From Massilia sp. R2A-15 (lineage in GTDB: Bacteria > Pseudomonadota > Gammaproteobacteria > Burkholderiales > Burkholderiaceae_D): a stretch of DNA of 64,000 bases. Location: contig NZ_CP131935.1 of the NCBI RefSeq assembly GCF_030704305.1, forward strand, positions 3,224,001 through 3,288,000, read 5' to 3'. The notes beneath the pieces were generated by a model that was not told the origin of the DNA, searched no databases, and saw only the letters and a list, made by a program, of their open reading frames with translations. Of this stretch, positions 644-62,619 are shown piece by piece. The position numbers and the translations under genes were made by a program. Numbering within the stretch: the stretch's first letter is position 1; every line of letters begins with the position of its first letter.

Positions 644-1050
644 GATTGTCGTTCCTGCGAAGGCAGGAACCCATGCTGAATCTGCTCCATTGGTACTGCG
701 TGCTCAGCATGGGTTCCTGCCTACGCAACGACGGCATTATCGGGTGGCAGGTGATAGGGTCTGACCCCGCGGGGTCAGACTCCGGACGCGGCGCGTAATT
801 TCCAGGGTGGGCCGATTGTCGTTCCTGCGAAGGCAGGAACCCATGCTGAATTTGCTCCGTTGGTGCTGCGTGCTCAGCATGGGTTCCTGCCTACGCAGGA
901 ACGACGGCATTATCGGGTAGCAGGTGATAGAGTCTGACCCCGGACGCGAGAAGCCTGTCGCACCTGCGAAGGCAGGTGCCTATGCTGAGCATCCGGACCG
1001 GTAATGCAAGCTCAGCATGGGTTCCTGCCTCCGCAGGAACGACGGTCTAT
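644..1050. repeat. Array of three REP-like extragenic palindromes
   Basis: Three imperfect palindromes of about 86-90 bp lie at 648-733, 818-906 and 957-1044. Each starts gtcg(t/c)(t/a)cctgcgaaggcagg and ends with the inverted arm cctgcct(a/c)cgcaggaacgacg; copy 1 lacks three bases (gga) of the right arm. Copies 1 and 2 are part of a tandem duplication with a 170-bp period that also repeats the downstream text gcattatcgggt..caggtgatag. Copy 3 begins with a variant left arm (gtcgcacctg). The same family recurs at 62531-62619 and, split by an IS110 element, at 21937-23210. The stretch 514-1130 has no convincing gene. The array may act as transcription terminator or RNA-stabilising structure for motD, but no T-run is present. 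Confidence 0.85.
759..780. repeat. Perfect 22-bp palindrome GTCTGACCCC/GGGGTCAGAC
   Basis: A perfect palindrome centred between bases 769 and 770, between REP copies 1 and 2. A shortened version (gagtctgacccc) follows copy 2 at about 930-941. It belongs to the same word family (GGTCTGACCCC / GGGGTCAGxC) as the large inverted repeat at 24275-24384. Its function is unknown; a hairpin without a T-run could be a weak terminator. Confidence 0.6.
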
Positions 1051-19896: not shown

Positions 19897-20793
19897 TCAA
19901 AAGATCCGCTCGTTCAGCAGGCGCAACAGGTATTCGCCGTAGCCGCTCTTGTGCAGGCGCTGCGCCAGCGCGCGGAGCTGGCCGGCGTCGATATACCCTT
20001 TCCGGTACGCGATCTCTTCCGGGCAGGCCACTTTCAGCCCCTGGCGGTGTTCGATCGTCGCGATGAACTGGCTCGCCTCGAGCAGGGAATCGTGGGTGCC
20101 GGTGTCGAGCCAGGCCATGCCCCGCCCCATCACCTCGACGTTGAGCTGGCCGCGCTCCATGTAGGCGCGGTTGACGTCGGTAATCTCCAGTTCGCCGCGC
20201 GCCGATGGCGTGATCGCGGCGGCGATGTCGGCCACTTGGCCGTCGTAGAAGTACAGGCCGGTGACGGCGTAATGCGATTTCGGCGCCGCCGGCTTTTCCT
20301 CGATGCTCACCGCGCTCCCCGCCGCGTCGAACTCGACCACCCCGTAGCGCTGCGGATTGTGCACGTGGTAGGCAAACACCGTCGATCCCGCCGCCTGGCT
20401 TGACGCGGCCTGCAAGCGCGCCTCGAGCTCATGGCCGTAGAAGATGTTGTCGCCCAGGATCAGCGCCGATGGCCCGCCGCCGAGGAAATCGCGGCCGATC
20501 AGGAAGGCCTGCGCCAGGCCCTCCGGCGCCGCCTGCACCGCATAGCGCAGGCGAAGGCCCCACTGGCTGCCGTCGCCCAGCAGCTCCTCGAAACGCGGCG
20601 TGTCGCGCGGCGTGGAAATGATCAGGATGTCCTGGATGCCGGCGAGCATGAGCGTGGTCAGCGGATAGTAGATCATCGGCTTGTCGTACACCGGCAGCAA
20701 CTGCTTCGACACGGCGAACGTCACCGGATACAGGTGCGTGCCCGATCCGCCGGCCAGGATGATGCCCTTGCGGGCGGGCGCGGACGCGGTCAT
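19897..20793 (-). CDS. rfbA: Glucose-1-phosphate thymidylyltransferase with altered signature
   Basis: A 298-aa nucleotidyltransferase making dTDP-glucose. Nearly all signature stretches are present ([65 protein letters not shown]). However, the phosphate-binding loop reads GGSGTHLYP where the family has GGSGTRLYP; the codon is CAC instead of CGC. Start ATG 20793 overlaps the rfbB stop (ATGA). The reading frame stays open upstream only because of high GC content and overlaps rfbB. Confidence 0.94.
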
Positions 20794-21818
20794 TGCTTCT
20801 CCCCCGCCATGACGTCGTGCAGCCACTGCGGGTTGGCCAGGTACCACTCGACGGTGGCGCGCAGCCCTGCCTCGAAACTGTGCGCCGGCTTCCAGCCCAG
20901 TTCGCGCGCGATCTTGCCCGCGTCCACCGCGTAGCGCCGGTCGTGTCCGGCCCGGTCTGCGACGTGGGTGACCAACGCGCGATGGCTGCCGCGCGGGTTC
21001 GGGTCGAGTTCGTCGAGCAGGTCGCACAGCGCATGCACCACGGCGAGGTTGGTTTTCTCGTTCCAGCCGCCGACGTTGTAGACCTCCCCTGCCCGGCCGC
21101 CGGCCAGCACCGTACGCAGCGCGGCGCAATGGTCGGCCACATACAGCCAGTCGCGCACCTGGGCGCCGTCGCCATACACCGGCACCGGCTGGCCGGCGCG
21201 GCAGCGGGTAATCGCCAGCGGGATCAGCTTTTCGGGAAACTGCAGCGGGCCGTAATTGTTCGAGCAGGCGCTGGTCAGCACCGGCAAGCCGTAGGTCTGA
21301 AAGTAGGAGCGCACCAGGTGGTCGGCGGCGGCCTTCGAGGCCGAATACGGGCTGTTCGGCGCGTAGCGCGAGGTTTCCGTGAACGGCGCATCGGCAGGGC
21401 CGAGCGAACCGTACACTTCGTCGGTGGACACATGCAGGAAGCGAAACGCGGCGCGGTCCGAAGGCGGCATGTCCAGCCAGTAGGCGCGCGCCGATTCGAG
21501 CAGGCAGAAGGTGCCGCCGACGTTGGTGTCGATGAACGCGGCCGGTCCGCTGATCGAGCGGTCCACGTGCGTTTCGGCGGCGAAGTGGACGATGGCGCGC
21601 GGCCGGTACTGCGCCAGCAGCGCGGCCAGGCGCGCGCTGTCGCCGATGTCGGCCCGGACGAAGATATGGCGCGGATCATGGTCGAGGCTGGCGAGGTTGG
21701 CCAGGTTGCCGGCGTAGGTGAGCTTGTCGACATTGACGACCGCTTCATCGCTTTGCGCCAGCCACTCCAGGATGAAATTGGATCCGATAAAACCGGCACC
21801 ACCAGTAACTAAGATCAT
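20790..21818 (-). CDS. rfbB: dTDP-glucose 4,6-dehydratase
   Basis: A 342-aa extended SDR enzyme, first committed step to dTDP-4-keto-6-deoxyglucose. The NAD-binding [11 protein letters not shown] is at residues 5-15; VSTDEVYGS holds the catalytic Thr-Asp-Glu; [12 protein letters not shown] holds Tyr-x3-Lys; [16 protein letters not shown] and the C-terminal [12 protein letters not shown] are signatures. It is the first gene of the rfb run. The IS110 element begins 128 bp upstream of its start, so an IS-borne or truncated promoter region is possible. Confidence 0.96.
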
Positions 21819-21952
21819 GAATTCGGGTCGGAAGAGTCGAAAATGCGAACGTGATCGAATGTTACACGATGTGCAATCGCGCTATCGCTGCGATGGCGAA
21901 ATGCGAACCGGCAAACACTGGCGCTGCCCGAATCAGGTCGTACCTTATACGC

Positions 21953-22140
21953 TGTGGAACACGTTATGATTTCTGAGGACGCTTGGAAAACGAAGGGCAT
22001 GTAGGCTGAGTCGTACCCGAGGCTTCGAGCCTGTTGACGCAGATAAGCCGCATGTCCTTCCCTTTATCGCAGAGTGCGAACAGTATCTGAGGCTGCGAGC
22101 CTGTGTTCTTAAGGATGCACGAGATAAAGTCCTAGCGAAA
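21953..22140 (+). ncRNA. Predicted IS110 bridge RNA (target and donor guide RNA)
   Basis: Two similar internal-loop hairpins follow each other. Hairpin 1: outer stem aagggcatg (21993-22001) with catgtcctt (22051-22059), inner stem ggct/agcc, cap aggct-tcg-agcct. Its left loop strand holds gtcgtacc (22010-22017), identical to the target at 21937-21944. Its right strand holds cgcag (22038-22042), complementary to CTGCG at 23153-23157. Hairpin 2: stem ctttatc (22062-22068) with gataaag (22123-22129), inner stem gtgc/gcac, cap aggct-gcg-agcct. Its left strand holds acagtatct (22080-22088), identical to the right end of the element plus core (23146-23154). Its right strand holds taag (22110-22113), complementary to core plus left end CTTA. 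This is the target-loop then donor-loop plan known for IS621. The 5' end is inferred from a junction promoter. Confidence 0.78.
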
Positions 22141-22165
22141 TCACCAGCGGATGGGGGAGGCTGCC

Positions 22166-23140
22166 ATGGAAGTAGTCGGAATCGATATCGCAAAGCGTAA
22201 ATTTGACTTGGCTTGGCTGTCGGGAAAAACGGGCAAGATTCGTAACAAGGCATTTGAAAATTCGCCCGTTGGCTTTCAGGCGCTTTGCGATTGGCTCGTC
22301 GAGCAGGGTATTTCGGCGAATGAGTGTCGCGTGGTGATGGAAGCGACCAGCCAGTATTACGAAGCTCTGGCGCATGCCATGTTTGACGCTGGATATTTGG
22401 TCAGCGTCGTCAATCCTTTGCAAATTAAAGCTTTTGGCCAATCTGAGATGCGCAGACAAAAGACTGACCGAGCTGATGCCGAGTTGATCGCCCGATTTGG
22501 CGAGCAATCCAAGAAGTTGGTCCTCTGGGAGCCTCCCGCGACGGAAGTGCGGGAGTTGCAGCGCCTCATCGCGCGCCTGGAAGCGGTTCAAGGCATGCAT
22601 GTGCAGGAGCAGAATCGGCGTCACGAAGCGGCGGGCCAAGCGTTGGAATCGGTCGATCGCATATTGCTGACTTTGAAGGAAGAGGAAGCATTATTGACGC
22701 AAAAAATCCGCGATCATATCGACCGCCACCCCGGACTGCGGAATCAACAGGAACTCCTACGCAGTATTCCCGGGGTGGGGGAACGGGTTAGCAGTTATTT
22801 TCTTGCGTGGCTTCCTGTAGACCGCTTTGATAATATCCGCCAGATGGTGGCGTTCGTAGGACTATCACCGGAACATAATCAGTCCGGCGATTCGGTGCAC
22901 GGCAAATCACACTTGTGCAAGCTAGGACATGGACGACTACGCAAAATATTGTACTGCCCGGCGATGACCGCGATTCGGTTCAATCCAGCTGCCCAAGCGC
23001 TCTACGCGCGACTTCGAGCTGCAGGCAAAGGGGGTAAAGTCGCGTTGGTCGCAGTCATGCGCAAGCTGATCCATTGGATGATGGCGGTACTGAAGAGTAA
23101 CGCACGCTTCGATCCAAAAATGGCGCTTGCAAAAAATTAG
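22166..23140 (+). CDS. IS110-family transposase (DEDD plus serine recombinase)
   Basis: A 324-aa recombinase. The N-terminal RuvC-like domain has D7 (GIDIAKRKFD), E59 (VVMEATSQYYE), and D101 and D104 (KTDRADAELI), the DEDD set. A coiled-coil region (140-190) leads to the Transposase_20 domain with the helix-hairpin-helix LLRSIPGVGE (198-206) and the nucleophile region LSPEHNQSGDSVHGKS; the serine is probably S240. ATG 22166 is preceded by GGGGGAGG at five bases; an ATG five codons upstream overlaps that ribosome binding site. Family members excise as circles and insert under guidance of an RNA. The gene looks intact, so the element may be active. Confidence 0.93.
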   Translation: MEVVGIDIAKRKFDLAWLSGKTGKIRNKAFENSPVGFQALCDWLVEQGISANECRVVMEATSQYYEALAHAMFDAGYLVSVVNPLQIKAFGQSEMRRQKTDRADAELIARFGEQSKKLVLWEPPATEVRELQRLIARLEAVQGMHVQEQNRRHEAAGQALESVDRILLTLKEEEALLTQKIRDHIDRHPGLRNQQELLRSIPGVGERVSSYFLAWLPVDRFDNIRQMVAFVGLSPEHNQSGDSVHGKSHLCKLGHGRLRKILYCPAMTAIRFNPAAQALYARLRAAGKGGKVALVAVMRKLIHWMMAVLKSNARFDPKMALAKN

Positions 23141-23152
23141 GGACCACAGTAT

Positions 23153-23210
23153 CTGCGCAGGCAGGTACCCATACTGAGCGTGCATGCGTTTCCCTTGCAC
23201 GCGTACGACG
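23153..23210. repeat. Right part of the IS-interrupted REP-like palindrome
   Basis: Together with 21937-21945 this is one REP-like unit. The left arm continues as CTgcgcaggcaggtacccatactgag. The normal right arm is mostly missing, and only gcgtacgacg (23201-23210) remains after a spacer with its own small hairpin (cgtgca/tgcacg). The unit was therefore already eroded or belongs to a shorter subtype. Confidence 0.7.
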
Positions 23211-62530: not shown

Positions 62531-62619
62531 GTCGTACCTGCGAAGGCAGGTACCTATACTGAATACGCGTTCACTCTTCTGCGCGCTCAGCATGGGTACC
62601 TGCCTCCGCAGGTACGACG
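62531..62619. repeat. REP-like palindrome overlapping the end of the CoA-transferase gene
   Basis: Left arm gtcgtacctgcgaaggcagg (62531-62550); the right arm is the inverted form ending ggtacgacg (62611-62619). It belongs to the family at 648-1044. Its right part encodes the last codons of the minus-strand CoA-transferase gene, whose stop (62571-62573) lies in the loop. Both arms contain gtcgtacCTgcg, the exact word bound by the predicted bridge RNA. Confidence 0.88.

What the first reader, a model, noticed from the sequence alone, without database searches (positions are those of the whole stretch)
21985..22140. A complete bridge RNA can be read in the left end of an IS110 element
The 220-nt non-coding left end folds into two successive hairpins with internal loops, with near-identical caps (aggct-N-cg-agcct). 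Loop 1 has gtcgtacc on its left strand, identical to the target just left of the element (21937-21944), and cgcag on its right strand, complementary to core plus right target (CTGCG). Loop 2 has acagtatct, identical to the element's right end plus core (nine of nine), and taag, complementary to core plus left end (CTTA). This is the IS621-type plan of target-binding loop then donor-binding loop, deduced here from sequence alone. All four guides fit the actual insertion.
Basis: partly seen in the sequence, partly recalled or inferred. Interest (0 to 1): 0.88.

Follow-up and report, generated by a model that had tools for sequence, protein, structure and literature searches.

The report
Bridge RNA guiding an IS110 transposon
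A short jumping gene in this bacterium carries, just ahead of its one protein gene, what reads as a guide RNA that fits both the element's own ends and the repeated genomic site where all five of its copies sit; it is a clear new example of a recently discovered kind of system, with a possible twist in the two-letter crossover site.

Summary
The window carries a complete 1,209-bp IS110-group element (21946-23154) whose left end encodes an IS621-type bridge RNA. A model built from 23 relatives (IS621 included, this element excluded) hits the 64-kb window only at 21985-22126 (66.7 bits, E 1.5e-16). All five copies in the genome sit at one motif, GTCGTAC-CY/GCG, an arm of a genomic repeat (140 exact sites; 16 for the reversed pattern). 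Across 38 elements the left target guide follows each element's own target (6.18 of 7 letters; permuted 4.41; 0 of 10,000 reach it), and so does the right guide. The closest relative with a readable left end (63%) has a different loop and a different target that agree, and seven two-sided compensatory changes in the target-loop stem. The mechanism is known (IS621 papers, 2024), so this is a new member of a known kind. Unexpected: in this element and that relative the left guide reads CC, not CT, at the crossover dinucleotide; insertions at CC are seen in both genomes; and the residue aligned with IS621 G63, which contacts that T, is Ser in both but Gly in the 36 others. No transcript or activity was tested.

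The parts
21937..21943 (+). left target (LT), GTCGTAC
   Evidence: same 7 letters left of all five genomic copies; repeated in LTG
21944..21945 (+). left core dinucleotide CT (CT in 4 copies, CC in 1)
21946..22165 (+). left end (LE), 220 nt non-coding; begins TATACG
   Evidence: boundary from five copies whose left flanks differ beyond the target motif
21970..21989 (+). 5' stem-loop UUUCUGAG-GACG-CUUGGAAA, probable 5' part of the RNA
   Evidence: in the MFE fold; relative L074 has UUUCCUAAG-GACG-CUUGGGAAA
21992..22060 (+). target-binding loop: outer stem 21992-22007 with 22046-22060
   Evidence: 15 pairs; against L074 14 of 15 kept, 7 with changes on both sides
22010..22018 (+). left target guide (LTG) GTCGTACCC
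   Evidence: identical to LT plus first core base; ninth letter C equals core CC of copy L004 and mismatches CT of the other four
22020..22032 (+). cap hairpin 1 AGGCT-TCG-AGCCT
22038..22042 (+). right target guide (RTG) CGCAG, complement of CT-GCG
22043..22044 (+). handshake guide AT, complement of donor positions 6-7 (AT)
   Evidence: sequence; role as described for IS621 in PMC11208158 (passages)
22062..22129 (+). donor-binding loop: outer stem 22062-22068 with 22123-22129
   Evidence: in L074 three of seven pairs fail unless the register is shifted by one base
22080..22088 (+). left donor guide (LDG) ACAGTATCT
   Evidence: identical to right end plus core; LDG first 8 letters equal the right end in 26 of 33 elements, third letter A/G agrees in 33 of 33
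22090..22102 (+). cap hairpin 2 AGGCT-GCG-AGCCT
22105..22113 (+). right donor guide (RDG) GTTCTTAAG: TAAG pairs CTTA, GT pairs AC further on, with UC looped out and one non-canonical U-T, as in IS621
   Evidence: sequence mapped by me to the IS621 scheme of PMC11208158 (passages)
22166..23140 (+). IS110 recombinase (324 aa); ribosome-site-like GGGGGAGG upstream
   Evidence: PF01548 and PF02371; PDB IS621 8wt6 E 1.3e-66, ISCro4 9t56 E 1.9e-63; DEDD and catalytic Ser kept
23141..23154 (+). right end with left donor ACAGTAT (23146-23152) and core CT (23153-23154)
   Evidence: identical in five copies
23155..23161 (+). right target GCGCAGG
   Evidence: GCGCAGG in 4 of 5 copies, GCGGAGG in 1

Best explanation
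It is an intact IS110-group insertion sequence of the IS621 type. Its left end is transcribed (inferred) into a bridge RNA of about 170 nt with a 5' stem-loop, a target-binding loop and a donor-binding loop. The recombinase binds this RNA. [quoted passage not shown] the donor loop pairs in the same way with the joined ends of the circular element (ACAGTAT-CT-TATAC). The top strands are cut just after the two-base core and exchanged, placing the element in one arm of a repeat present in well over a hundred copies in this genome. Shown here: element boundaries, five copies at one motif, guides matching target and donor, covariation of guides with targets among relatives, compensatory changes in the target-loop stem against one relative, conserved catalytic residues. 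Inferred from IS621: transcription, circular intermediate, RNA-protein binding, strand exchange.
For: Five copies, all at GTCGTAC-C[T/C] ... CT-GCG[C/G]AGG. Model R1 from 23 relatives without this element: one hit in 64 kb on both strands, at 21985-22126, E 1.5e-16 (calibration is short, E-value rough). LTG against own target over 38 elements: free scan over the left end, 7.45 of 9 against 6.23 permuted, 0 of 2000; anchored, 6.18 of 7 against 4.41, 0 of 10,000; 26 non-redundant elements 6.35 against 4.37, 0 of 10,000; 25 without this element 6.32 against 4.36, 0 of 10,000. RTG over 31 elements 2.45 of 3 against 1.47, 0 of 10,000. L074 (63% protein identity): LTG GTCATCC-CC, target GTCATCC-CC. 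Stem pairs against L074: 7 with change on both sides, 4 on one side, 20 unchanged, 4 broken of 35; slid versions pair 30-46% of cells against 94%. IS621 run through the same script gives an LTG and RTG that agree with the residue numbers printed in PMC11208158 when these are counted on the recalled 177-nt sequence.
Against: No RNA or activity data. Energy folding alone is weak. A crude promoter scan over the joined ends does not help: best score 8 of 12 here, equal to IS621 (8) and below L049 (10) and L115 (9), with the -10 word overlapping the core. Seven of 38 elements match fewer than 6 of 7 target letters (L054, L057, L065, L066, L078, L088, L089). In L074 three of seven donor-stem pairs fail without a one-base shift. 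On six more distant relatives 10-14 of 35 pairs break and 1-5 fall on gaps when the structure is projected on a plain alignment. LTG position 9 mismatches four of the five targets.
Confidence: 0.95

Rival explanations
1. The protein itself reads the repeat (REP-like hairpin) and the loop matches are relics or coincidence.
For: The target is one arm of an inverted repeat; a 2006 paper suggests, for the REP-targeting IS1397 and ISKpn1, that transposases themselves set target specificity (PMC1525189, passages read).
Against: Guides follow targets across 38 elements, the best match lying 68-79 nt before the donor guide in 30 of 38; the closest readable relative differs in loop and target together; relatives at unrelated targets have matching loops.
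Confidence: 0.02
2. The element is a degenerate or immobile copy and the RNA is no longer used.
For: No activity data; promoter not identified.
Against: Open frame without stops, conserved catalytic residues, five full copies of which three are identical to each other and the other two share the same four substitutions, which points to recent movement.
Confidence: 0.03
3. The left-end conservation reflects end recognition by the recombinase (DNA sites, promoter), not a guide RNA.
For: The donor guide is by nature a copy of the right end.
Against: Compensatory pair changes on both sides of the target-loop stem and target-following letters inside the element are not expected of end-recognition sites.
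Confidence: 0.02

Closest known systems
IS621 of E. coli and its bridge RNA (PMC11208160, sections 6, 7, 8, 12, 21 and passages; PMC11208158, passages)
   Same: Upstream non-coding end, two-loop RNA, order target loop then donor loop, LTG/RTG/LDG/RDG layout, donor ACAGTATCT, discontiguous RDG, handshake letters AT, DEDD plus Ser, insertion in a genomic repeat; protein 42% identical
   Different: Different target repeat; both caps near-identical 5-bp hairpins; one extra base in the RTG linker; LTG reads CC at the core; Ser at the residue aligned with IS621 G63
ISCro4 (PDB 9t56, name)
   Same: Same recombinase family, E 1.9e-63
   Different: Its RNA was not compared here
seekRNA of IS1111/IS110 elements (PMC11187229, start of abstract and passages seen)
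   Same: In IS110 members the upstream non-coding region gives an RNA with a part matching each target strand
   Different: IS1111 members carry it downstream and have subterminal inverted repeats
REP-targeting IS110 elements such as ISPa11, ISPpu9, ISPpu10 (PMC1525189, passages read)
   Same: All copies counted there lie in a repeated extragenic palindrome
   Different: Other hosts and repeats; sequences not compared here

Membership tests
IS110 family, IS110 group | DEDD RuvC-like domain plus Transposase_20 domain with catalytic Ser | tested here: met
   PF01548, PF02371 above cut-off; D7 E59 D101 D104 S240 align with IS621 D11 E60 D102 D105 S241
IS110 family, IS110 group | long non-coding region upstream of the gene, short right end | tested here: met
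   220 nt left, 14 nt right including the core
IS110 family, IS110 group | site-specific insertion, core dinucleotide CT at both ends | tested here: met
   right core CT 5 of 5; left core CT 4 of 5, CC 1 of 5
IS110 family, IS110 group | circular intermediate | not testable with these tools
   no reads available
IS621-type bridge RNA | two successive internal loops, target then donor, in the left end | tested here: met
   energy folding alone is not decisive
IS621-type bridge RNA | LTG/RTG match target, LDG/RDG match donor, core included in each | tested here: met
   exception: LTG core position 9 reads C, so fully paired only at the CC copy
IS621-type bridge RNA | guides covary with targets among relatives | tested here: met
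IS621-type bridge RNA | promoter rebuilt at the joined ends | tested here: inconclusive
   best crude score 8 of 12, the same as IS621; not discriminating
IS621-type bridge RNA | RNA expressed and bound by the recombinase, needed for recombination | not testable with these tools
   no experiment
IS1111 group | long non-coding region downstream of the gene | tested here: not met
   right end is 14 nt
IS1111 group | subterminal inverted repeats of 7-17 bp | not tested
   no search for them was made

The most novel reading that the evidence does not exclude
This element belongs to a lineage of bridge recombinases with altered core recognition: its target core may be CC while its donor core stays CT. 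The left target guide encodes the target's core (CC) and the right target guide encodes the donor's core (CT), so at a CC target the loop pairs better after strand exchange than before and could bias the reaction towards insertion. The change goes with Ser instead of Gly at the residue aligned with IS621 G63, whose backbone contacts the core T.
Probability: 0.35. Interest if true: 0.6.

Novelty: new member of a known kind. Interest (0 to 1): 0.42.

Why it matters
It shows that a bridge RNA, with all four guides and its target, can be read from one raw sequence, and adds an element targeting an abundant bacterial repeat. If the split-core reading is right, nature already has recombinases whose target and donor cores differ, which bears on how strictly IS621-type systems require a T at the core and on what sets the direction of the reaction.

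Tried and rejected
RNAalifold on a plain MAFFT alignment of 23 relatives (A2) found only three consensus pairs; I put this down to an alignment that is not structure-aware. The resulting model R1 is therefore almost a sequence profile (152 positions, 3 pairs) and its hit is not proof of the fold. The fold was tested instead against the one relative alignable by sequence (L074). Projected on six more distant relatives without realignment, 10-14 of 35 pairs break and 1-5 fall on gaps, which I take as misalignment but did not prove. Thermodynamic folding alone was not decisive. Rfam: no match at gathering score. Genome contigs with the single protein: none; with the 32-protein alignment: nine loci, of which four (L075, L077, L078, L081) entered the guide test. 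Viral contigs: none. The left-end DNA finds nothing in plasmids or phages at E 1e-5. Searches in further genomes at strict cut-offs gave G603 and no second close relative.

Rows dropped before the 38-element tests, of 76 loci given: L083 (no tblastn hit); L064, L079, L080, L082 (left end cut or missing); L076 and L087 (left boundary not recognised or plainly wrong); 31 further copies of elements already represented (L002-L005, L072, L073, L090-L114). The 38 are one per element and genome; G098 gives two different elements (L052, L115). The left-boundary patterns were chosen by eye from printed left ends with the loops in view, so that step was not blind. In one search the donor-guide position was misassigned in four rows (L050, L051, L055, L056). 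In one search the RTG finder took a wrong position in L075, L077 and L088, missed L049, and L061 had too little right flank; the rows were left as they fell. A search for Y1 transposases found two in the genome; their link to the repeat was not followed.

Full report
What is there. The window lies in a 5.03-Mb, single-contig genome that is not named. At 21946-23154 is a 1,209-bp element with a 220-nt non-coding left end, a gene of 324 codons plus stop (22166-23140) and a 14-nt right end including the core. The protein carries PF01548 and PF02371, matches IS621 (8wt6, E 1.3e-66) and ISCro4 (9t56, E 1.9e-63) among solved structures, and keeps the catalytic D, E, D, D and S. The genome holds five full copies: three identical, two sharing four substitutions inside the gene. 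The left flanks differ beyond the target motif; the right flanks share the rest of the repeat for a stretch and then differ. This fixes the boundaries independently of any guide reasoning.

The target. Left of all five copies is GTCGTAC followed by CT (4) or CC (1); right of all five is GCG followed by CAGG (4) or GAGG (1). GTCGTACYYGCG occurs 140 times exactly in the genome against 16 for the pattern read backwards; of the 100 sites listed, 84 have CT, 14 CC and 2 TT at the core, and many come as inverted pairs about 58-88 bp apart, as in REP doublets. Insertion into REP-like repeats is a known habit of IS110 elements (PMC1525189 and PMC11208160, passages read).

The RNA. They also follow the IS621 scheme as printed in PMC11208158 (passages read): RDG as TAAG plus a second short run beyond two looped-out bases; AT after the RTG as handshake letters complementary to donor positions 6-7; G after the RDG complementary to target position 7 (position 6 does not pair). 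A 5' stem-loop lies at 21970-21989. The mapping of residue numbers onto this RNA is mine. A covariance model from 23 relatives, IS621 among them and this element excluded, has one hit in the window, 21985-22126, 66.7 bits, E 1.5e-16; as the model has only three base pairs, this shows sequence-profile homology with relatives' left ends rather than the fold.

Do the guides follow the target? Left boundaries of relatives were set from the conserved element start and the core by a pattern that does not use the loop, though I chose the pattern by eye with the loops in view. Of 76 loci given to, 38 elements entered the test (one per element and genome, IS621 included; the others are listed under tried and rejected). 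A free scan of each left end for its own target gave 7.45 of 9 letters against 6.23 with permuted targets (maximum 6.71; 0 of 2000). The best place lay 68-79 nt before the donor guide in 30 of 38; in four the donor guide was misassigned by the script and in four the best place was elsewhere (L054, L057, L066, L088). Anchored there, positions 1-7 match 6.18 of 7 against 4.41 (0 of 10,000); after removal of near-identical loops (26 elements) 6.35 against 4.37, and without this element (25) 6.32 against 4.36 (0 of 10,000 each). 31 of 38 match at least 6 of 7. The three RTG letters next to the core match 2.45 of 3 against 1.47 (31 elements, 0 of 10,000). The donor guide equals the right end over eight letters in 26 of 33, and at its third letter (A or G) in 33 of 33 (all). 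Permutation does not correct for relatedness; the removal of near-identical loops is only a partial remedy.

The closest readable relative. L074 (63% protein identity) has LTG GTCATCCCC and sits at GTCATCC-CC / GCGAAAG. Of 35 pairs of the proposed structure it keeps 20 unchanged, 4 with one side changed, 7 with both sides changed and breaks 4; the target-loop stem accounts for all 7. With the partner slid by 1-3 columns 30-46% of cells pair, against 94%; 3 of 500 shuffles reach the count of two-sided changes. Two sequences are few, and the structure was drawn from one of them.

An unexpected detail. In IS621 and related orthologues the core is CT and the T is almost invariant, contacted by the backbone amide of G63 (PMC11208158, passage read). 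Here the LTG reads CC while the RTG reads CT and the right end carries CT. L074 has the same split, and its left core is CC; in its genome 95 of the 100 listed (of 114) GTCATYCYYGCG sites have CC, so CC is the usual core of that repeat there. One of the five copies in the window's genome also has CC on the left and CT on the right. L080, a Zoogloeaceae fragment 68% identical over 133 residues, ends ACAGTATCT-GCGAAAGCGGGAATCC, the same kind of repeat, but its left end is missing. At the residue aligned with IS621 G63 this element and L074 have Ser, the other 36 elements Gly; 29 of the 32 proteins of alignment A1 have Ser, 3 Gly. By script the LTG core letters are CT in 29 of 38, CC in 3 (this element, L074, and L089, where the script looks misplaced), TG in 4, GT in 1 and GA in 1; the last six are L060 and five elements with GACCC right targets, where the reading depends on the offset chosen and by eye is not settled. 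This is one lineage, so the link between Ser and CC is a single correlation; a Ser backbone amide could make the same contact; a later mutation at the left core of single copies is not excluded, only less likely in two genomes.

What is not shown. No transcript, no circle, no recombination. A crude promoter scan over the joined ends scores this element 8 of 12, IS621 8, L074 8, L115 9 and L049 10, so it neither supports nor excludes an IS621-like junction promoter. A TATGAT shared with L074 lies at 21965-21970.

Verdict. As a kind of system it is known. Searches of the open-access library for bridge RNA with IS110, seekRNA and bridge RNA, core dinucleotide, IS621 listed the founding papers, reviews and unrelated papers, and none of the listed titles concerns an element with unlike target and donor cores; I read only parts of four papers, so this is no proof that it is not in print.

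Noticed in passing
window 648-1043 and 62531-62618: More copies of the target-like repeat (GTCGTTCCTGCG, GTCGTACCTGCG), several as inverted pairs about 76 bp apart; 11 matches with up to one mismatch in the window against 2.48 expected. 62531/62607 is an empty exact target pair.
   Followed up: partly
window 23201-23209: GCGTACGAC downstream of the element looks like a worn partner arm of the interrupted repeat.
   Followed up: no
L117, L118 (G000:C1:4060168 and 4219615): Two Y1 transposase genes (PF01797) in the genome; that such genes can spread REP repeats is recalled.
   Followed up: no
window 20790-21818: A dTDP-glucose 4,6-dehydratase-like frame on the minus strand (name recalled, no call) starts 127 bp from the element's left end, so the insertion lies in or near its upstream region.
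   Followed up: no
L116 (E. coli NZ_CP151045): The left end of IS621 is partly duplicated in tandem at this locus, element start found twice 85 bp apart.
   Followed up: no
H2, plasmid AP018204.1 (Leptolyngbya): A relative, 42.5% identical, is annotated as a pilin gene inverting protein.
   Followed up: no
L057, L063, L065, L066, L068: A group whose RTG matches CT-GACC fully while the LTG letters at the core do not read CT at the offsets the script chose: the left guide may not pair with the core, or the offset differs.
   Followed up: partly
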